A DNA stretch of 64,000 nt from Devosia sp. 66-14 (GTDB lineage: Bacteria; Pseudomonadota; Alphaproteobacteria; Rhizobiales; Devosiaceae), in NCBI GenBank assembly GCA_001899085.1, contig MKVB01000007.1, positions 55,641 through 119,640 on the forward strand. The letters are read 5' to 3'. Of this stretch, positions 50,439 through 62,224 are shown piece after piece. The notes beneath the pieces were generated by a model. The model made no database searches. It was given only the letters and a program-made list of their open reading frames with translations, and was not told where the DNA came from. Within the stretch, counting starts at the first letter, position 1. Every line of letters begins with the position of its first letter. Both the position numbers and the translations under genes were made by a program.

Positions 50439-50540
50439 GCCATGCCCCGAGTTGCCCCGGCCTGCCCCGAGTAACCAGCTACGCTGCCGGCTGCCCGCCT
50501 CCTAGGCTCCGCCTGATTGATCGGGTTCGGGCGGCAGGGC

Positions 50541-53207
50541 ATGGTTTACCGGAACGGGGCAGTTCGGCGCGGCGTGGCTGCGGCGGTCGCGGTGAAGCTG
50601 GCGCTCGCCACTGCGTTGGCGCCGGCATGGGCCGCCGATGTCGACATTTCCGCCAGCACCACCACCGGGGTCAACCTCAACCTCTATGCCGGCACCACGG
50701 TCGACATCCTATCGGGGGTCTCGGTCAGCAACACCCTGGGCGGTCCGACAGTGAGCGGCACCGGCACCTGGACCCTGGGCAACCACGGCAGCATCAGCGG
50801 GCAGATCAAGCTCGACGGCGCCGGGTCCAGCGTCACCAATTCGGGCCTGCTCGCCGGCGGCAACGCCATCACGCTGGTCGGCGGCGGCACCGTGGTCAAC
50901 GAGCTTGGCGCGACCATCAATGCGTCGAGCAGCGCCATCAGCATCGGCAAGTTCCCCAGCGGCGGCAATCCCGGCGTCGGCCCGGGCGTCGTCACCAATT
51001 CCGGCACCATCACGCAGGTCGTTTCCGGCGGCGATCTGGTGCTGCTGCAGTTCGGCGGCTCGGTGACCAACACCGCGACCGGCGTGATCACCGGCGACAG
51101 TTCCGGCAATGCCGTCTCGATCGGCCAGGGCACCGAACGCACGGTGATCAACTCGGGCAGCATCATCAACATCAGGCAGACCAGTACCTCCACCGGCGTG
51201 TTCGTGCAGGGCGGGCCCAGCACCATCACCAACAATGCCGGCGGGGTCATCAAGGGCGGCTTCAACGGCGTCTATGCCAGCGCCACCGGGGTGCTCACCT
51301 TCACCAATGCCGGCACCATCGAGTCCACCGGCAGCAGTGCCAGCTCCAAGGCAGTGGAGGCGACCGGCGGTGGTACCTTCATCAATTCGGGCACCATCAC
51401 GTCTGCAGCCGGCGACGGACTCTACCTCAACGCCGCCGGGACGGTGACCAACTCGGGCACCATTACCGGCGCCGTCAACGCCATCAATTTCAACGGCAGC
51501 AGCACCCGCACGCTGAAGCTCGACACCGGCTCGGTGCTCAATGGCCTAGTCAAGGGCGGCACCGGCACCGATAACCTGATCCTGCTCGGCGCGGGCAGCG
51601 AGAGCATCGCGAAATTCATCAACTTCGAAACCCTGTCGATGCAGGGCAGCGCCTGGACGCTCAGCAATTCCGGCAGCTTCGCCACCAGCGCCGAGGTGCA
51701 GGCCGGGGTGCTGAACGTCCTGGGCACGCTCACCAGTGCGACCATCGACATCCGGGCGTTGGGCACGGTCAAGGGCACCGGCACGTTGGCGGGCGCGGTG
51801 AACAATGCCGGCACGGTCGACGTTTCGGCCGGCACGCTGAACGTCGCCGGTAGCTATACCAACGCGACGGGCAGCACCTTCAAGGTCGGTGTCACCCCGG
51901 CAACCGTCGCCGGCCAGCTCGCTGTTTCGGGCGCCGCGACGCTGAGCGGCGGCACCGTCAGCGTCACCGCCGCCAGCGGCTCCTACGCCTTGGGCAGCGC
52001 CTACCGGATTCTCACCGCGGCAAGCGTCAGCGGAACCTTTGCCGATCTCGTCGACGACTCGGCCTTCCTCGAGTTCGTGCTCGACTACGACACACCCGGC
52101 GAGGTGTGGCTGCGCGTTTCGGCGATCGCGAACCTCCCCGTGATCGCCGAGACGCCAAACCAGCTGGCCACCGCCACCGCGCTGCAGGCGCAACCGACAA
52201 GTCCGCTGTTCGATGCGGTGGTGCCGCTGAATACCGCTACGGCGCTCGAGGCGTTCGACGATCTCTCCGGCGAGGTGCACGCCTCCTTGCTGCGGAGCCT
52301 CGCCGATGCCGGCCGGTATCCGCGCGAAGCCGCCCTCGACCGGGTCGACGCTGCATTCGCGGCGATCGCAGAGAGCCAGGTGGGAGCGCGCAACATCTGG
52401 GCCCGTGGCTACGGCGCCGTCGGCACGGTAGAGGGCGACGGCAACGCCGCCGGCTACGATTTCGGCGCTGGCGGCATGCTGCTCGGCGCCGACGGGTTGG
52501 TGAGCCGCGAGGTGTTTGTCGGCATGCTGGCCGGCATTGGCGCTGTAGCGGTCGATGTGCCCGAGCGCGACTCGCGGGCCGAAGCCACCAGCTATCAACT
52601 CGGGCTCTATGGCGGCGCGGCGTTCGGCCAGGTGCGGCTGGCATTCGGGGCGGCGGTGGCGGCCAACCAGGTATCGGTGACGCGCACCCCCAGCTTCACC
52701 GGCTTCAGCGAGACGTTGAACGCCGACTATTCCACCACCACGGCGCAGCTGTTCGGCGAACTCGGCTACGCGTTTGAACTGGGCGACGTGGAGCTGACGC
52801 CGTTTGTGCGGGCGGCGCTGATCGGCCAATCGGGCAGCCGCTACAGCGAGAGCGGCGGCGACGCGGCGCTGAGCGGCGCTTCCGGCGGGATCGGCCTCGG
52901 CGTCCTCAGCGCCGGCCTCAAGGCGGTGCGTCAGTTCGTGGTCGGCGACGGCCTGGTGCTGGCGGCGCGCGGCAGCATCGCGGTGCAGCGCACCACTGGC
53001 GATCAGCCGATGGCGACGCATGGTTTCGCCGGCGGCACCCCGTTCACTGTGAGCGGGGCAAGGCCAGGCGACACCGCCGTGCTGCTCGAGGCCGGGCTCG
53101 GCGGCGAGCTGGCGCCGGGTATGAACCTTGACCTCGGCTATCAAGGCCAGTTCGGCGGTGCGCAGTCGACGCACGCGGTGAAGCTGACGCTGTCGGGCAA
53201 GTTCTGA
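50541..53207 (+). CDS. Autotransporter outer-membrane protein
   Basis: 888-residue type Va secretion protein. Signal peptide (VAVKLALATALAPAWA, to about residue 32). Passenger of about 550 residues made of Thr/Ser/Asn/Gly-rich beta-helix repeats with recurring NSGTI, NAGTI and TGVITG turns. C-terminal beta-barrel (about 620-888) begins ARNIWARGYGAVG and ends LTLSGKF with the terminal Phe needed for outer-membrane insertion. No protease or lipase motif seen in the passenger, so adhesion is the default guess. Confidence 0.92.
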   Translation: MVYRNGAVRRGVAAAVAVKLALATALAPAWAADVDISASTTTGVNLNLYAGTTVDILSGVSVSNTLGGPTVSGTGTWTLGNHGSISGQIKLDGAGSSVTNSGLLAGGNAITLVGGGTVVNELGATINASSSAISIGKFPSGGNPGVGPGVVTNSGTITQVVSGGDLVLLQFGGSVTNTATGVITGDSSGNAVSIGQGTERTVINSGSIINIRQTSTSTGVFVQGGPSTITNNAGGVIKGGFNGVYASATGVLTFTNAGTIESTGSSASSKAVEATGGGTFINSGTITSAAGDGLYLNAAGTVTNSGTITGAVNAINFNGSSTRTLKLDTGSVLNGLVKGGTGTDNLILLGAGSESIAKFINFETLSMQGSAWTLSNSGSFATSAEVQAGVLNVLGTLTSATIDIRALGTVKGTGTLAGAVNNAGTVDVSAGTLNVAGSYTNATGSTFKVGVTPATVAGQLAVSGAATLSGGTVSVTAASGSYALGSAYRILTAASVSGTFADLVDDSAFLEFVLDYDTPGEVWLRVSAIANLPVIAETPNQLATATALQAQPTSPLFDAVVPLNTATALEAFDDLSGEVHASLLRSLADAGRYPREAALDRVDAAFAAIAESQVGARNIWARGYGAVGTVEGDGNAAGYDFGAGGMLLGADGLVSREVFVGMLAGIGAVAVDVPERDSRAEATSYQLGLYGGAAFGQVRLAFGAAVAANQVSVTRTPSFTGFSETLNADYSTTTAQLFGELGYAFELGDVELTPFVRAALIGQSGSRYSESGGDAALSGASGGIGLGVLSAGLKAVRQFVVGDGLVLAARGSIAVQRTTGDQPMATHGFAGGTPFTVSGARPGDTAVLLEAGLGGELAPGMNLDLGYQGQFGGAQSTHAVKLTLSGKF

Positions 53208-54558: not shown

Positions 54559-55686
54559 CTAGGATGCCCGCTGCAGTACCTCGGGCGCCGCTGCCGATTG
54601 GCCGACAAATGCCGCGGGGTGGCGGACCAGCAGGTGGATCAGTTCCGACTGGCTGTGCGTGCGGGTCTTCTCGAACACCGATTTCAGGTGCCGGCGGGCC
54701 GTTTCCGGGGAAATCCCGAGCTCGTCGCTGGTCGGCCGCATGCCGCGGGTTTCGACCAAGGTCTGGGCGAAGCTCGCCTCGCGCGGCGTGAGGCCATACA
54801 GGCTCATCAGCGCTGCCGCATCGGGATAGCTGGTGCTTTGCGGGTCGCTGAGCATCAGCAGCGCCACCGCCTCGCGCGCCTCGTGGTGCCGCCATTCGTC
54901 GGGCACCGCGGTGACGAGGGCCGAGAGCGGCGTGTCGGCGCCGGAGCGCTCGATGCGGAAGGCGACCGGTTTGCCGACTACCCCCAGATGCGCGGCGAAC
55001 GCCGCCTCCGGGTTGCCGCGGATGCCCGCCAGATGCAGGAAATCGACCTTCAGGCTGACCCCGTCCAGCGTATCGAGCAGCATGCGGGCCCGACCATTGG
55101 CCCCGATGGCATGACCGCGGCGATCGAGCAGCACCAGCCCATATGGGCTGGTTTCGAACAAGGTGGTCGCCGGCTGCCGCCGCTCGCTCGCCATGCCGCG
55201 CAGCGCTCGCCTCAGATGCAGCATCAACGCCTCAACCGCCTCGATCTCGTCGGGCGAGAACGGCGGCTGGCTGTTCGAGCGGGTGAGGCAGAAGAAGGCG
55301 ACGCGCCCCGGCCCTTGCGGCAGCAGCGCATGCATGAAGTGGCGCAGGCCATTATGGGCCAGGAAGGAGCGGTAGAACTCGGAATTGCCGAGCACCGGAT
55401 CCTGGTCGATCTGCTGCACCAGGGACAGGGTACCGCGCGGCAGCCGCCAGGCCCGCTCCATCAACGGATCGCGCCCGCCATACGAGCCGCACTGATACTG
55501 CACCCACAGATGCGAGGCGCCTTCGGCCATGCCGGTGCCGCGATCCGGCGCCTCGGTGGTCAGCACGGCGTGCACGGCGTCGAAACAGCGTCCGACCTCG
55601 TTGACGAAATCGAGCCAGCTGCGTGTGCCCTCGGCCGCGTCGTAGACCAGGTCGGAGAGCTTGCCGAGCTGCGAAATCAGGCTCAT
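54559..55686 (-). CDS. LuxR-type transcriptional regulator
   Basis: 375-residue regulator. The N-terminal half is a ligand or redox-sensing domain without receiver features; the middle is PAS-like (PYGLVLLDRRGHAIGANGRAR); the C-terminal GerE-type helix-turn-helix spans about 310-365 (LTPREASFAQTLVE, DELGISPETARRHLKSVFEKT). ATG at 55684-55686 with GGAGG upstream. Divergent from the cytochrome gene; the inverted repeat in between recurs upstream of the PQQ dehydrogenase, marking its likely targets. Confidence 0.92.
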   Translation of the reverse strand: MSLISQLGKLSDLVYDAAEGTRSWLDFVNEVGRCFDAVHAVLTTEAPDRGTGMAEGASHLWVQYQCGSYGGRDPLMERAWRLPRGTLSLVQQIDQDPVLGNSEFYRSFLAHNGLRHFMHALLPQGPGRVAFFCLTRSNSQPPFSPDEIEAVEALMLHLRRALRGMASERRQPATTLFETSPYGLVLLDRRGHAIGANGRARMLLDTLDGVSLKVDFLHLAGIRGNPEAAFAAHLGVVGKPVAFRIERSGADTPLSALVTAVPDEWRHHEAREAVALLMLSDPQSTSYPDAAALMSLYGLTPREASFAQTLVETRGMRPTSDELGISPETARRHLKSVFEKTRTHSQSELIHLLVRHPAAFVGQSAAAPEVLQRAS

Positions 55687-55719
55687 CGTTTCGCCTCCTC
55701 CCGGTTGCGCCGCGGACGC

Positions 55720-55737
55720 TGACCCAAACGGGTCATG
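55720..55737. promoter_or_regulatory. Shared operator TGACCCAAACGGGTCATG, copy 1
   Basis: Inverted repeat TGACCC-aaac-GGGTCA between the divergent LuxR and cytochrome genes, 60-77 bp before the cytochrome ATG. Seventeen of 18 bases match the copy upstream of the PQQ dehydrogenase. Confidence 0.7.
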
Positions 55738-55796
55738 CCGAATTGTCGCCAGCATGCCAGAGATCATCATTACGAACACCTGAGTTGAACATTGCC

Positions 55797-56306
55797 ATGT
55801 CTGATACCCGACAGCATCGCTCCAGCAGCCGGCCGGTCTTCGCTCGGTTGCTGCTCGCCGCCATCGCCTCGCTGAGCCTCTTCGCCCCTGCTTTCGCGCA
55901 GGACCTAGCGGCCGATGGCCTCAAGGTCTGGAAGGAGCGCGGCGGCTGCTTCAACTGTCACGGCGATTTCGGCCAGGGCGGCGAAGGCGGGCATTTCCCT
56001 GCCGGCCCGAGCCTGCGCGCCAGCCAACTCGATCCCGATTCGATGCGCGAGATGATCGCCTGCGGCATCCCCGGCACGCCGATGCCCTACAACCTCAAGG
56101 GCGCCTATATCGACACCGAGTGCTATGGCGAAAAGGGCGCGGTGCTGGAAGGCGCGGTGCCCGGCGCCAGCCTCGAGCCGGCCGAACTCGATGCGCTGAT
56201 GGCCTATCTGGGTGAAAAAGTGGTCGGCAAGCGCCGCATCACCAAGGCCGAATGCGTCGAATACTACGGGGACCCCAACGCCGTGGCCTGCGCGGATTAT
56301 CGCTGA
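55797..56306 (+). CDS. Periplasmic c-type cytochrome
   Basis: 169-residue electron carrier. Signal peptide to about residue 35 (LLLAAIASLSLFAPAFA). One heme site CFNCH near residue 52, with a likely axial Met in GTPMPYN. It ends with a Cys-containing tail (ECVEYY, AVACADYR). The most likely partner is the PQQ dehydrogenase nearby, from which it would take electrons in the periplasm; both share the upstream operator. Confidence 0.93.
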   Translation: MSDTRQHRSSSRPVFARLLLAAIASLSLFAPAFAQDLAADGLKVWKERGGCFNCHGDFGQGGEGGHFPAGPSLRASQLDPDSMREMIACGIPGTPMPYNLKGAYIDTECYGEKGAVLEGAVPGASLEPAELDALMAYLGEKVVGKRRITKAECVEYYGDPNAVACADYR

Positions 56307-56367
56307 GACCTCAAGCGGCGCGCGGTGCGCACTTCGAGTTCGCTCCCACCGGCGCTAGTGCTTTGGT

Positions 56368-56430
56368 CTCCTCCCCCCTTGCGGGGAGGGACAGGGTGGG
56401 GGTGTTCTTCCCGCACCGATCTGTCTTTTG
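56368..56430. repeat. Half element of the CCTCCCC family
   Basis: tcctccccccttgcggggag, then ggacagggtgggggtgttct and tcccgcacc: corresponds to the right half of the 38.4-kb element. Between the convergent cytochrome and pentapeptide-repeat genes. Confidence 0.75.
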
Positions 56431-56474
56431 CTGAGGGGCGCAGGCGGGGGGCAGCCCTCGCTGGCCCGTCAGAT

Positions 56475-57935
56475 CTACTTCGCCGTCGAGCCATCCGGCA
56501 TCAATGAATCGGTGAACACCGTCCCCGTCGTCACCGCGTTGCGCAGGTTCGCCCGGCTGAGGCGAACATGCGTCATGGTGGCGTCGGTGAGGTTGGCGCT
56601 TTCGAGCGTCGCGCCCTGGAAATCGGTGTCGTGGAAGTCGGCGCCCGAAAGATCGGCGCCGCGCAGCACCGCGCCGGTGAAATTGCTGTCCTCTGCGCTG
56701 ACCTGGCCGAGCTTGGCGCGGATCAGGCTGGCCTGGTAGAAATACGACCCGGTGAGCGTCGCCGCACTGAAATCGGCGTCGTTGAGCCGAGCGCCGCCCA
56801 GGTCGGTTTTCACCAGCGTGGCGGCCGCGAACTTTGCCTGCCGCAGTTCGATGTCGCCGAGCCGGGCGCCGCTGAGGTCGGCGCCGCCGAAATCGGGGCG
56901 GCTGCCCCGGACCGCGTAGAGCAGGGCGCCGTTCATCCGCGCCCCGACGAACGTCGCCAGGGTCAGGTCGGCGGCGTTGAGATTGGCCTCTGTGAGGATG
57001 GCCCCGGTGAAGTCGGCATTGCGAAGATTGGCCCGGTGCAGCACGGCGCGGGTCAGGTCGGCGCCGGCGAGGTTGGCGTCGCTGAGGTCGCGGCGGCGGA
57101 GATCCGCGCCGCCGAGTGCGCAGCGCGGGCAGTCATTGCTCAGCCCGGCGAGGAAGCGCTGTGTCGGCGTGGCGTCGGCCGGCAGTGTCTCGGTCGGCCC
57201 TGGATCGGCAATGACGGCATCCGCATAAGGCTGCCGCTCGACCACCTCGAGCCGGGCGTCGCTGGCGAAAGCATTGATGCTGTCCTTGCCGGTCACCGGG
57301 TCGATCAGCTTCTGCCCGGGCTTGAGGTAGAAATGCGTCTCGACCGTCGCCGTCCTGGTGTCGGTCTCGATGCTGCAGCGCTGCTTGACGAAGGTCCCTT
57401 CGATTGCCTCCTCGCCGGCCAGACGCGGCAGGTCGGTGCAGCTCCAGTCGGTGCCGAACAGTGCGCGGAAGGTTGCAGCGGCGACATGCGCCTCATAGCG
57501 CTCGCGCTCCGGCGCGCGCGGATCGGTGAAGATGCGGTAGCCGCGGACGGCGCCGCTGTCATCGGCGAGCAGACTCATGATGGCCAGCTGGCCGTTGACC
57601 GCGGTGCGCCGGTTCTGCATCGCGGCGACCGGGTTGCGGTAAGCCAGCGCCATGTATTCGAGCGCATCGTCGTAGCGGAACCACACCTCGTGCAGGCCCG
57701 TCGCGTCGGGGGTGCAATCGGCGAAATCGGCAAAACTTCCGAGCGCCGTCCCGGCCGGCCCGCCATTGGTGCCGCAGGCGGGATCGACGAAATCGGGCCC
57801 CAGTGCGGTAATCGGCGTGCCCAGCGGGATATCCCACAGCTTCGGTGGAACTTGCGCCAGCGCCGGCTCGGCGAGAGCGCCGAGCAGCGCGGTGCCGACA
57901 ATCGCGGCGCAGCAGGCGAGGGGGCGGAGCCGCAT
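56475..57935 (-). CDS. Secreted pentapeptide-repeat protein
   Basis: 486-residue exported protein. Signal peptide to about residue 28 (LACCAAIVGTALLGALAEPALA). Residues about 30-280 form an unrecognised domain with several Cys (DPACGTNGG, DWSCTDLP, QRCSIETD). After a CPRC motif in NDCPRCALGG comes a pentapeptide-repeat helix of about 200 residues (ADLRRRDLSDANLAGADLT and on). Start ATG at 57933-57935. 47 bp downstream of the PQQ dehydrogenase on the same strand, so probably in its operon. Confidence 0.88.
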   Translation of the reverse strand: MRLRPLACCAAIVGTALLGALAEPALAQVPPKLWDIPLGTPITALGPDFVDPACGTNGGPAGTALGSFADFADCTPDATGLHEVWFRYDDALEYMALAYRNPVAAMQNRRTAVNGQLAIMSLLADDSGAVRGYRIFTDPRAPERERYEAHVAAATFRALFGTDWSCTDLPRLAGEEAIEGTFVKQRCSIETDTRTATVETHFYLKPGQKLIDPVTGKDSINAFASDARLEVVERQPYADAVIADPGPTETLPADATPTQRFLAGLSNDCPRCALGGADLRRRDLSDANLAGADLTRAVLHRANLRNADFTGAILTEANLNAADLTLATFVGARMNGALLYAVRGSRPDFGGADLSGARLGDIELRQAKFAAATLVKTDLGGARLNDADFSAATLTGSYFYQASLIRAKLGQVSAEDSNFTGAVLRGADLSGADFHDTDFQGATLESANLTDATMTHVRLSRANLRNAVTTGTVFTDSLMPDGSTAK

Positions 57936-57950
57936 CGGAACCTCGGTGTT

Positions 57951-57974
57951 CGGGGAGGGCCGTGGCCCTCCCCG
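57951..57974 (-). promoter_or_regulatory. Perfect intercistronic palindrome
   Basis: CGGGGAGGGCC-gt-GGCCCTCCCCG, 11-bp arms, in the 47-bp gap between the dehydrogenase stop and the pentapeptide-protein start. No T-tract. Likely an mRNA-stabilising or attenuating hairpin. Confidence 0.6.
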
Positions 57975-57982
57975 TATGAGCA

Positions 57983-59749
57983 TCAGAGGCCGAACACGAC
58001 GACCTGGCTGGCCGCCTCGTACATGCCCAGCCGCGGGCCGGCGCCCTTCGAGCCGCCGACCACGACGGCGATGTACTGCTTGCCATCCACCGCGTAGGAG
58101 ATCGGCGGTGCGCCGATCGGCGTGCCGACGTTGAACTTCCACACTTCCTGCATGGTGTCGGCATCGTAGGCGATGAGATCGCCATCCGGGTTGCCGCCGA
58201 ACAGGAGGCCCCCGGCGGTCGAGAGCAGGCCCGAATTGGTCGGGGCCGGCGTCTTGATCTCGCTGACTTTCTCGCCCGTCTCGGTGTTGACCCCGATGAT
58301 CAGGCCGGGAGCGCCCGGGAAGGCGTAGTCGAAGGTCCAGAAATTGCCGCCGCCCCACATGCCGGGGTTGCCCTGCAGGTCGGTGCGGGTGGGGTCGATA
58401 TGCTCGGTGATGCCCTGGTTGAAGCAGGCGTCGATCGCCTGCACCCAGGTGATCTTACGCTCCGGATCATAGGCCGGCGGCCACCAGGTGGCGGTGGGCA
58501 GCGCCGGGCAGACATCCTGCGCCGTGGTCGGATCGCCGACTTTCAGCGTCTTGTTCTCGGCATAGCTCTGGGTGAGCGAACCCGGGACATATTCGAGCGG
58601 CTTGCCGGTCTTGGGGTCGAGCCCCTTGGTCCAGTTCGGATCGCGGTACGGGGTGCCGAAGATGAAGGCGCCGTTGGTGCGGTCCATGGTGTAGAAGAAG
58701 CCGTTGCGCGAGAACGTGCCGACGGCCTTGCGGGTCTCGCCGCCGACATTGATGTCGTACAGCATCTTCATGTTGATGGTGTCGTAGTCCCAGGTCTCCT
58801 GCGGCACTTCCTGGAAATACCACTTCACCTCGCCGGTATCGGCATCCACCGCCATCGTCGAGTTGGCATAGAGGTTGTCGCCGGGCCGGAACGCCGGGTC
58901 GGCCCAGGGCTGCGCTTCGCCCGTGCCGAAGATGATCAGGTTGGTGTCGGGATCGTAGGACGCCGTCGACCAGACGCCGGCGCCGCCGGTGAGGTAGGCG
59001 TTGTGATCGTCGGCCCAGGTCTCGTGGCCCGGCTCGCCCGGACCGGGCACCGTGTAACGCCGCCACAGCAGCTTGCCGTCCTCGGCGCTGAACGCCGCGA
59101 TCCAGCCGCGCATGCCGGGACCGGCCGCGCTGGTGATGATCTTGTCGCCCACCGCCAGCACGCCGCCGGTGGCGCGCTCGGCACCCGGCACGTTGTCGGG
59201 CCCGCGGGTATCGACCTGCCAGACGATGTCACCATATTCGTCGTCGAGCTTGACCAGCTGCATCTCGTTGCGGGTGACGTAGTAGATATCGTCGCCGAGC
59301 AGCGCGACGCTGCCCATCTTGCTGGCGGTGCCCTGGGCGCCCAGGTCGGTCTTCCAGATGATCTCGCCCTTCGAACCGCTGGAAACGTCGATCTTCATCA
59401 CGTTGTCCCAGGCGTCCTGGACATACATGAAGCCATCCTTGACCAGCGGCGTGGCGCGCTGGCCCGGCGCCTGCGCGCCGATCGAGCCGGGCTGGCCGCC
59501 GCCGATAGCGGTCATGAACTTGATCTTGAGACCACCGACATTGTCCTTGGTGATCTCCTTGAGCGGCGAGTGCGAGAAGCCGGCATAGCTGCCATAGGGC
59601 AACAGCCAGTTCTGCGGTTCGTCCTTCTGCGCGTTGACCAGGCGCTCCGGCGTCACCGGATCAGCCAGCGCCGCTCCGATGCTGACCGTGGCCAATAGCG
59701 TCGCCGCAGCAGCCAGGAGCGCCGCACGAGAGATAGTCTGCTTTGTCAT
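57983..59749 (-). CDS. PQQ-dependent alcohol dehydrogenase (methanol/ethanol dehydrogenase family)
   Basis: 588-residue periplasmic quinoprotein. Signal peptide to about residue 29 (LLAAAATLLATVSIGAALA). Eight-bladed propeller repeats are visible, as are the family segments ASYDPDTNLIIFGTGEAQPW, RPGDNLYANS with the probable catalytic Asp, WDYDTINM and PTATWWPPAYDP. There is no heme domain, so electrons must leave via a separate cytochrome. The usual vicinal Cys-Cys pair before the second blade is missing: that site reads GTASKMGS. The only two Cys are in DVCPALP and DACFNQG. ATG chosen with GGAGG upstream. Confidence 0.94.
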   Translation of the reverse strand: MTKQTISRAALLAAAATLLATVSIGAALADPVTPERLVNAQKDEPQNWLLPYGSYAGFSHSPLKEITKDNVGGLKIKFMTAIGGGQPGSIGAQAPGQRATPLVKDGFMYVQDAWDNVMKIDVSSGSKGEIIWKTDLGAQGTASKMGSVALLGDDIYYVTRNEMQLVKLDDEYGDIVWQVDTRGPDNVPGAERATGGVLAVGDKIITSAAGPGMRGWIAAFSAEDGKLLWRRYTVPGPGEPGHETWADDHNAYLTGGAGVWSTASYDPDTNLIIFGTGEAQPWADPAFRPGDNLYANSTMAVDADTGEVKWYFQEVPQETWDYDTINMKMLYDINVGGETRKAVGTFSRNGFFYTMDRTNGAFIFGTPYRDPNWTKGLDPKTGKPLEYVPGSLTQSYAENKTLKVGDPTTAQDVCPALPTATWWPPAYDPERKITWVQAIDACFNQGITEHIDPTRTDLQGNPGMWGGGNFWTFDYAFPGAPGLIIGVNTETGEKVSEIKTPAPTNSGLLSTAGGLLFGGNPDGDLIAYDADTMQEVWKFNVGTPIGAPPISYAVDGKQYIAVVVGGSKGAGPRLGMYEAASQVVVFGL

Positions 59750-59862
59750 GGAATCCTCCGCGAAGCCGGGCCGGAAAACCGGCTCGGCAGCATGACGGCG
59801 CAGCGGGTGTGTAGCCCCCCGCTTCCTGCCTGCGACAACGTGTTCTGGTGTTGCGCGGTTGT

Positions 59863-59880
59863 CATGACCCGTATGGGTCA
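59863..59880. promoter_or_regulatory. Shared operator TGACCCATACGGGTCATG, copy 2
   Basis: Read on the minus strand toward the PQQ dehydrogenase, whose start is 113 bp further on. TGACCC-atac-GGGTCA, with the same flanking ATG as copy 1. Confidence 0.7.
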
Positions 59881-59993: not shown

Positions 59994-60209
59994 ATGCCCT
60001 CACATCACGCCTGGGTGCCGATCCGCGTGGCGCAGCATGACGGCGAGACGCCGGAGCAATACCAGCGACGACGCGCCGAGATCGAGCGCATCGTCACTGG
60101 TTTTCGCATGGGCCGCTATGCCGAGGCCGAGGCGGAGCGCCTCGAACGGCGCCTCGCCCAGCTGCGCGGCGATCAGTCGAAGAAGCCGGCGTCTTCTTCC
60201 TTGAGGTAG
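59994..60209 (+). CDS. Possible small helical protein
   Basis: 71 residues: MPSHHAWVPIRVAQHDGE followed by a long charged helix (RRRAEIERIVTGFRMGRYAEAE...). The frame extends back to an ATG at 59925, but that would translate the repeat copy. It overlaps the convergent dehydratase gene by 37 bp. No family recognised. Confidence 0.45.
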   Translation: MPSHHAWVPIRVAQHDGETPEQYQRRRAEIERIVTGFRMGRYAEAEAERLERRLAQLRGDQSKKPASSSLR

Positions 60210-61531: not shown

Positions 61532-62224
61532 TCATCGGCGCAGGCTCCGCTGGGCAACGCCCATCTGCTCGATGATGTGGCGGCCGGAGCCCTCGACGTG
61601 ACGGGCGACCACCGCGGCCGCGCCTTCGGCGTCCTGTGCGCGGATCGCCTCGATCAGCTCGCGATGTTCGCGCAGCACCGACATGCGGCGGCTCAGCGAG
61701 GTCGGAAAGCGCCGGCTGATGGCGCGCAGGATCTCGCGGTGCTTCCACCACAGCTCCGCCGCGTGGCGGTTGTAATGTCGATCGTAGATGAACTGGTGGA
61801 AGCGCGTGTCGAGCCGGCCGTGCAACATCGGATCGGTGAAGTTCACCGCTTCGATCTCGGCCTGAATGCGCTCCAGCTCGACGATATCGGCGTCCGAGAC
61901 GATCGTCACGAACCAGCGGGTCAGCGCCGGCTCGATCAGCATCTCGATCTCGATGATGTCGCGTACGAAATCGGCGTCGATCGGGCGTACCCGGGCGCCG
62001 CGGTTCGGCTCGATCAGCACGAACCCCTCGCCGCGCAACTGCTGCAGCGCTTCGCGCACCGGATTGGTCGAGGTCTGGTAGTGCTCGGCGAGGTCCGCGA
62101 CCTTCAGCCGCTCATTGGGCCCCAGCCGTCCCGAAACGATGTCCTCGCGGATCATCTCGTAGACGGAGGCCTGCTGCTCGAGGCTGTCCTCGGGCCGATC
62201 CGACTTGACGGTCGCCTCGCTCAT
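61532..62224 (-). CDS. GntR family regulator, FadR/FCD subgroup
   Basis: 230-residue regulator. N-terminal winged helix at about 18-88 (VYEMIREDIVSGRLGPNERL, YQTSTNPVREALQQLRGEGFV) and C-terminal all-helical FCD domain with metal-binding His (FHQFIYDRHY, HRELIEAIRAQD). Divergent from the ABC binding-protein gene and upstream of the dehydratase, so it most likely represses both in the absence of a sugar acid. Confidence 0.94.
   Translation of the reverse strand: MSEATVKSDRPEDSLEQQASVYEMIREDIVSGRLGPNERLKVADLAEHYQTSTNPVREALQQLRGEGFVLIEPNRGARVRPIDADFVRDIIEIEMLIEPALTRWFVTIVSDADIVELERIQAEIEAVNFTDPMLHGRLDTRFHQFIYDRHYNRHAAELWWKHREILRAISRRFPTSLSRRMSVLREHRELIEAIRAQDAEGAAAVVARHVEGSGRHIIEQMGVAQRSLRR

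What the first reader, a model, noticed from the sequence alone, without database searches (positions are those of the whole stretch)
54559..59880. A LuxR-PQQ dehydrogenase-cytochrome-pentapeptide module tied together by a shared 18-bp operator
Seen directly: TGACCCAAACGGGTCATG lies between the divergent LuxR and cytochrome c genes (55720-55737), and TGACCCATACGGGTCATG lies upstream of the PQQ dehydrogenase on the opposite strand (59863-59880). They differ at one base in 18, are true inverted repeats (TGACCC-N4-GGGTCA), and I found no other copy in the window. Both point the same way relative to their structural gene. Inference: the LuxR protein controls cytochrome, dehydrogenase and the pentapeptide protein, a complete periplasmic alcohol-oxidation unit.
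Basis: partly seen in the sequence, partly recalled or inferred. Interest (0 to 1): 0.75.

Follow-up and report, generated by a model that had tools for sequence, protein, structure and literature searches.

The report
Conserved operator of PQQ dehydrogenase module
A bacterium related to Devosia carries two nearly identical 18-letter palindromes in front of a periplasmic dehydrogenase gene and its cytochrome gene, and relatives keep them in the same places while the DNA around them has changed, so they are very probably the binding sites of the regulator encoded next door; a neat but fairly ordinary gene switch.

Summary
In detail: TGACCCAAACGGGTCATG (55720-55737, +) and TGACCCATACGGGTCATG (59863-59880, -) are the only two copies in the window. 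Perfect TGACCCN4GGGTCA occurs at three places in the 5.72-Mb genome; the third is coding. Two congeners (G004, G006) with ~70% identical dehydrogenase and 44-45% identical LuxR keep both palindromes at the same gene starts, while upstream flanks align no better than shuffled sequence and downstream flanks only weakly better. luxR is inverted there, so site 1 belongs to cytochrome c. LuxR was found in 5 of 136 family genomes; all 5 have a site in the module. In one of them (G035) LuxR and a site accompany a different paralogous dehydrogenase, so the site tracks the regulator, though there it precedes a small ORF. LuxR is the only regulator seen shared by the five loci. Best reading: a one-component GerE regulator (no receiver domain found) binds both sites and co-activates cytochrome c and dehydrogenase-pentapeptide transcription. 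Binding and activation are inferred. The layout parallels the Pseudomonas ped/exa cluster. 'Complete alcohol-oxidation unit' is not shown: the enzyme lacks the Cys-Cys ring and has altered metal-ligand positions.

The parts
54559..55686 (-). LuxR-type regulator, 375 aa; GerE helix-turn-helix at residues 299-352; no receiver or autoinducer domain found
   Evidence: Pfam GerE 25.7 bits (cut-off 23.5) and no other family at E<=0.001; start chosen by ortholog alignment, so the 406-aa ORF from 55779 that runs over site 1 is not used
55720..55737 (+). operator 1, TGACCCAAACGGGTCATG; its 16-bp palindrome ends 61 bp before the cytochrome c ATG
   Evidence: identical 18 of 18 in G014, G004 and G006
55797..56306 (+). 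periplasmic-type cytochrome c, 169 aa, CFNCH haem motif
   Evidence: Pfam Cytochrome_CBB3 27.2 bits (cut-off 27); homologs in L068-L071
56475..57935 (-). secreted-type pentapeptide-repeat protein, 486 aa: N-terminal ~230-aa region plus pentapeptide beta-helix; the two parts match separately in paralogous modules
   Evidence: Pfam Pentapeptide 139.8 bits; model confident mainly from about residue 255, the repeat part; separate matches in L071, L074, L075 and the second module of L069
57983..59749 (-). PQQ-dehydrogenase-like beta-propeller protein, 588 aa
   Evidence: Pfam PQQ 185.1 bits; best solved relative a quinoprotein ethanol dehydrogenase, 6zcv
59863..59880 (-). operator 2, TGACCCATACGGGTCATG; its 16-bp palindrome starts 115 bp before the dehydrogenase ATG
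   Evidence: 17 of 18 (G004) and 16 of 18 (G006), all differences in the two central bases
59994..60209 (+). small ORF (71 aa) divergent from the dehydrogenase across operator 2; possible second target
   Evidence: length checked; a homolog lies 62 bp from the single palindrome of G035 (L071), but homologs occur in 21 of 136 family genomes, only 5 of which are LuxR genomes

Best explanation
The two palindromes are conserved operators of one small regulon. The neighbouring LuxR/GerE-family protein, a one-component regulator with an N-terminal sensor part, binds TGACCC-AWWC-GGGTCA-TG as a dimer upstream of the cytochrome c gene and of the dehydrogenase-pentapeptide operon and most likely switches both on together when it senses its signal. 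Shown: the sites, their positions, their conservation, the near-restriction of the 18-mer to this module, and co-occurrence with the LuxR gene. Inferred: binding by this LuxR, activation rather than repression, the signal, the sensor role of the N-terminal part, and co-transcription of dehydrogenase and pentapeptide gene.
For: Exact pair in the window, nearly unique in the genome. Both sites kept in G014, G004, G006; one in G035; one in G013, whose contig ends inside the pentapeptide gene. Window versus G004, ungapped, site 1: 14/60 upstream, 18/18 in the site, 34/98 downstream; with gaps, the four upstream comparisons of window with G004 or G006 are reached by 73 to 271 of 300 shuffles, the four downstream ones by 4 to 41 of 300. 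Distance from site 1 to the cytochrome ATG is 60-61 bp in 4 of 4, choosing the matching start. LuxR in 5 of 136 family genomes at E<=1e-30; of the 11 perfect palindromes in those 5 genomes 9 lie in the module; over all 136 genomes there are 57, of which 10 in modules (counted by hand). Genes seen shared by all five loci: LuxR, dehydrogenase, cytochrome c, pentapeptide protein (antisense shadows left out). In G035 LuxR and site go with a dehydrogenase 69% identical to that of G004's second, LuxR-less module, which has no perfect site. Paralogous modules in L074, L075 and L076, where no LuxR match was found, have no perfect site.
Against: No binding or expression data. Five LuxR genomes form about three lineages (G000/G014, G004/G006, G035; flanks within the first two pairs are clearly related). 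In G035 the one site precedes the small ORF and overlaps the pentapeptide gene's stop codon, not the start of an enzyme gene. No sigma-70-like promoter was found in the region. The bare palindrome TGACCCN4GGGTCA is more frequent in the family than its backwards control (57 against 4), so 47 copies outside the module need another cause; of 28 such copies checked roughly, 20 fell in likely coding ORFs, 3 were unclear and 5 lay outside, and none had a module gene other than one weak SBP match within 1.5 kb. That coding rule overcalls: it also labels the G006 site 1 as coding.
Confidence: 0.77

Rival explanations
1. The sites are real operators but are bound by a different, unlinked transcription factor; LuxR is a bystander.
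For: Binding not shown; in window and G014 site 1 also lies close to the luxR start (33 bp in the window), so luxR could be a target rather than the binder.
Against: LuxR is the only regulator seen shared by the five loci; the window's GntR gene has no match in L069-L071 at E<=1e-4; LuxR and site co-occur 5 of 5; in G035 they go together with another paralog.
Confidence: 0.13
2. LuxR binds the sites but is a repressor (or autorepressor) that blocks these promoters until a ligand releases it. This overlaps with the best explanation on binding; the odds are for this sub-case.
For: Transcription starts are unknown; a palindrome 60-61 bp from the ATG could overlap a promoter; site 1 lies 33 bp from the luxR ATG in the window.
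Against: GerE-family regulators are mostly activators (recalled); in G004 and G006 luxR no longer shares the site-1 region, so autorepression is not conserved.
Confidence: 0.2
3. Chance palindromes, or copies kept by shared ancestry without function.
For: Family genomes hold about 0.4 perfect palindromes each (57 in 136); the copies elsewhere that were read individually are inside coding sequences, and three non-coding ones lie in hairpin or converging-gene settings (L085, L087, L091).
Against: Two sites in one 4-kb stretch kept while upstream flanks align no better than shuffles; the 18-mer TGACCCAWWCGGGTCATG outside the module occurs only in 2 of 397 order genomes, in the same coding gene.
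Confidence: 0.02

Closest known systems
ped/exa cluster of Pseudomonas (agmR/pedR1-erbR, pedR2-exaE, pedD, pedE-exaA, pedF-exaB; PMC12997753)
   Same: PQQ-type dehydrogenase, small cytochrome c, secreted-type pentapeptide-repeat protein and LuxR-type activators in one locus; pedD follows the cluster's induction (PMC12997753, passages and section 12).
   Different: The Pseudomonas regulators are described there as parts of two-component systems; the window's LuxR has no receiver domain by Pfam. The window enzyme lacks the adjacent-cysteine ring. Relation of the pentapeptide protein to PedD was not tested.
CrbR and its imperfect inverted repeat (ACTU motif) in Pseudomonas (PMC5715377, passages)
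   Same: A LuxR-family activator with an inverted repeat conserved at its target promoters and found by comparing species.
   Different: Two-component regulator of acetate genes; different repeat sequence.
NarL 7-2-7 sites of E. coli (PMC7419079, passages)
   Same: NarL dimer on two 7-base elements as an inverted repeat with 2 bp between (16 bp); a single site just upstream of the -35 element can suffice.
   Different: Different half-site; NarL is a phosphorylated response regulator.
One-component PAS-GerE regulators such as EL222 and VqmA (domain make-up recalled)
   Same: Both appear among weak fold matches of a low-confidence model of the LuxR.
   Different: No sequence relation shown outside the GerE domain; ligand unknown.

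Membership tests
LuxR/GerE transcription factors | C-terminal GerE helix-turn-helix | tested here: met
   PF00196 25.7 bits, cut-off 23.5; ETAR[RH]H[LI]KS conserved in 5 of 5 orthologs
AHL-type LuxR | autoinducer-binding domain | tested here: not met
   no Pfam domain other than GerE at E<=0.001
AgmR/ExaE-type response regulators of the ped/exa cluster | receiver domain with partner kinase | tested here: not met
   no receiver domain; no kinase among genes shared by the five loci
AgmR/ExaE-type response regulators of the ped/exa cluster | controls the linked dehydrogenase and cytochrome genes | not testable with these tools
   needs binding or expression data; conserved sites support it
PQQ-dependent alcohol dehydrogenases (TIGR03075) | score above curated cut-off | tested here: not met
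   381.1 of 480.05 bits; the G004 ortholog and four paralogs are also below, 367 to 434 bits
PQQ-dependent alcohol dehydrogenases | beta-propeller PQQ domain | tested here: met
   PF01011 185.1 bits
PQQ-dependent alcohol dehydrogenases | adjacent-cysteine disulfide ring near PQQ (described for PedE/PedH/ExaA in PMC12997753) | tested here: not met
   loop absent against 6zcv; no CC in 10 of 10 sequences compared, window included, some of them cut at the ends
Lanthanide-dependent alcohol dehydrogenases | second Asp two residues after the catalytic Asp (D-x-D), with Glu and Asn ligands | tested here: inconclusive
   D321-Y-D323 present; position of chain residue E199 of 6zcv is a gap and N281 is Glu278 (alignment; that 6zcv is PedH and the ligand roles are recalled)
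ped/exa-type module | dehydrogenase, cytochrome c and pentapeptide protein together | tested here: met

The most novel reading that the evidence does not exclude
A one-component LuxR sensor with GAF/PAS-like N-terminal part has replaced the two-component control of ped/exa clusters, reads its signal directly, and with a defined 18-bp operator drives a non-canonical clade of quinoproteins that has lost the cysteine ring and moved an acidic metal ligand (Glu lost at one position, Asn to Glu at another), hence possibly a new metal or cofactor use.
Probability: 0.2. Interest if true: 0.5.

Novelty: new variant of a known kind. Interest (0 to 1): 0.36.

Why it matters
It turns a LuxR protein that scores only for its DNA-binding domain into a testable regulator with exact sites and target genes, in a group (Devosia relatives) studied for quinoprotein detoxification of a mycotoxin (search listing and abstract starts). 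The signal LuxR senses could reveal the natural substrate of this dehydrogenase clade. The role of the pentapeptide protein, described as undefined in Pseudomonas (PMC12997753, section 12), could be approached from a small system.

Tried and rejected
Third perfect palindrome in the genome as a further regulon member: rejected. It lies 20 bases into a predicted 277-aa ORF (glycerophosphodiester-phosphodiesterase-like by recognition only), and congener G011, without LuxR, has the same N-terminal residues and the same 16 bases there.

Ten one-mismatch sites in the genome: by a rough length and GC3 rule 7 lie in ORFs and 3 were not assigned (L151, L159, L160). A rule of the same kind overcalls coding, so this is weak. 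None of the ten has an A-W-W-C spacer in either orientation, and none is within 40 kb of a PF01011 match.

G145, G146, G147 palindromes (AATC/AGAC spacers): inside a CDS beside ccmE/ccmF-like genes (names by recognition). G101: no module gene by tblastn; within a long ORF by the rough rule. G217 and G326 18-mers: inside one CDS that looks like PEP carboxykinase (recognition only). Of 47 non-module palindromes in the family, 28 were put through the rough rule; the second one of G006 (C17:449169) and other copies without a locus were not examined, except those named here.

DepA-type deoxynivalenol dehydrogenase: the entry recalled as that enzyme (7wmd) is a distant match (E 5.8e-39, against 7.2e-67 for 6zcv). 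GntR gene at 61532-62224 as the regulator: no match in L069-L071. Small ORF as a firm module member: weak. Promoter scan: none found. LuxR model: low confidence (mean pLDDT 56.7), so the GAF/PAS reading is weak. The genome-contig scan with the LuxR alignment gave only two genomes already held but named them. The order-wide LuxR search scored only 4 candidates per genome in the rows shown and used E<=1e-40, so a divergent ortholog could be missed. The first flank comparison was ungapped, which understates similarity when there are indels; a gapped one with shuffles was added.

Papers: searches (20 of 60 listed; 15 of 44 listed) showed no report of this operator; only listings and abstract starts were seen there, and subscription papers are not held.
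Full report
OBSERVATION. Both 18-mers are present at the stated places and strands; there is no third copy in the window even at 3 mismatches apart from the reverse reading of site 2. Perfect TGACCCN4GGGTCA occurs at three places in the window's 5,719,967-base genome, against none for the backwards control: the two sites, and one coding copy. With the full 18-mer and up to three mismatches, one additional distinct place appears in the whole genome; at that laxity the backwards control gives as many hits, so only the exact matches carry weight.

GENES. luxR (54559-55686, -), cytochrome c (55797-56306, +), pentapeptide protein (56475-57935, -) and dehydrogenase (57983-59749, -) were confirmed by Pfam. 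The LuxR shows only a GerE domain. The dehydrogenase matches the PQQ propeller strongly, its best solved relative being a quinoprotein ethanol dehydrogenase, 6zcv, but it stays below NCBIfam's cut-off for PQQ alcohol dehydrogenases. The genome encodes PqqE and three other proteins matching PF01011, so PQQ synthesis is plausible.

RELATED LOCI. Among 61 genomes searched with the dehydrogenase and LuxR (39 of 61 have some LuxR match, but only 5 at E<=1e-80), the module was fetched from G014, G004, G006, G035 and, broken by a contig end, G013. G014, G004 and G006 have two perfect palindromes, one before cytochrome c and one before the dehydrogenase; G035 and G013 have one each. One search names two of them: G004 is MAG Hyphomicrobiales PMG_193 and G006 is Devosia sp. 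66-22, so the window belongs to a Devosia-like genus (inference from the shared genus label and matching contig lengths).

FOOTPRINT. Ungapped, window versus G004 at site 1: 14 of 60 upstream, 18 of 18 in the site, 34 of 98 downstream; versus G006 17 of 60 and 34 of 98. For site 2 the arms and trailing TG are identical and only the two central bases vary; flanks agree at 15 of 60 and 34 of 128 (G004), 13 of 60 and 30 of 128 (G006). Aligned with gaps, the upstream flanks of window and G004/G006 score no better than shuffles (73 to 271 of 300 shuffles reach them); the stretches between site and ATG score a little better (4 to 41 of 300 reach them). So a perfect site sits in nearly unalignable surroundings: selection on the site. 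G000/G014 and G004/G006 flanks are clearly related, so these are two lineages, G035 a third. CATG follows site 1 after 17 bases in 4 of 4, possibly promoter; site 2 lacks it.

WHICH GENE DO THE SITES SERVE? In window and G014 luxR diverges from cytochrome c; in G004 and G006 luxR runs toward cytochrome c and ends before the site. The site keeps a 60-61-bp distance to the cytochrome ATG in all four, choosing among possible starts the one that fits. Site 2 lies 114-137 bp before the dehydrogenase ATG.

WHICH PROTEIN BINDS? LuxR was found in 5 of 136 family genomes at E<=1e-30 and in 1 of 397 order genomes, the window's own, at E<=1e-40 (the other four LuxR genomes gave no row there and were not in that sample). 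All five carry a site in the module. Perfect palindromes number 57 in 46 of 136 family genomes, against 4 for the backwards control; 10 are in modules; in the five LuxR genomes 9 of 11 are. The palindrome as such is therefore not exclusive to the module, and 47 copies elsewhere exceed the control. Of 28 of these put through a rough test, 20 fell in likely coding ORFs, 3 were unclear, 5 lay outside ORFs; the rule overcalls. Apart from one weak SBP match, none of the 28 had a module gene within 1.5 kb. The 18-mer is more specific: 4 places in 3 of 397 order genomes, two here and two in the same coding gene of two others. Genes seen shared by the five loci are LuxR, dehydrogenase, cytochrome c and pentapeptide protein. 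In G035 the LuxR-linked dehydrogenase is 40% identical to the window's and 69% identical to that of a second, LuxR-less module of G004 without a perfect site. The site therefore follows LuxR. These facts make LuxR the likely binder; they do not prove it. Against a simple picture, G035's site precedes the small ORF and overlaps the pentapeptide gene's stop codon.

MECHANISM. A 16-bp inverted repeat fits a GerE-domain dimer; NarL binds 7-2-7 inverted repeats, and one such site just upstream of the -35 element can suffice (PMC7419079, passages). The LuxR has no receiver domain by Pfam; a low-confidence model has weak fold matches to phytochrome, GAF and PAS sensors and to EL222 and VqmA. I propose a one-component, ligand-controlled activator. 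Activation is a guess from family habit.

COMPARISON. The module parallels the Pseudomonas ped/exa cluster: LuxR-type AgmR, pentapeptide PedD, PedE and cytochrome PedF (PMC12997753, passages and section 12). It differs in regulator type and in the enzyme: no adjacent cysteines in 10 of 10 compared sequences; D-x-D motif present; the Asn-ligand position is Glu in the four sequences of the window clade and Asn in five of the six paralogs compared, Gln in the G035 LuxR-linked one; the Glu-ligand position is lost in the window clade (ligand roles recalled).

VERDICT. A real, well conserved operator pair of a small, patchily distributed regulon. New in detail, familiar in kind.

Noticed in passing
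57983-59749 (residues 278, 321, 323): The dehydrogenase clade with both operators has Glu where 6zcv has its Asn ligand (GTGEAQPW), a gap where 6zcv has its Glu ligand, and keeps D-x-D; five of six compared paralogs keep Asn (one has Gln) and they have Asp near the Glu position. Looks like a swapped acidic ligand.
   Followed up: partly
56475-57935; L071, L074, L075, L069:12952-14546: The pentapeptide protein looks like a fusion of an N-terminal region (its separate form in L071 has no Pfam match) and a beta-helix; in paralogous modules the two match separately, in L075 on opposite strands, which suggests they work together.
   Followed up: partly
59994-60209: Small 71-aa ORF overlapping the end of the enolase-family gene; homologs in 21 of 136 family genomes, some in several copies, no Pfam match above cut-off; one homolog sits 62 bp from the only palindrome of G035.
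   Followed up: partly
L069:9992-16825: G004 carries two adjacent dehydrogenase-cytochrome-pentapeptide modules of different paralog groups, only the first with perfect palindromes.
   Followed up: yes
L085, L087, L091 (position 1501): TGACCCTATTGGGTCA recurs outside ORFs in three genomes of another genus; in L085 it is the core of a longer hairpin, in L087 and L091 it lies between converging genes, so it looks like terminator or stop-codon context.
   Followed up: partly
50517-53207: Large autotransporter (beta-domain at residues 627-876) beside a DUF763 gene.
   Followed up: no
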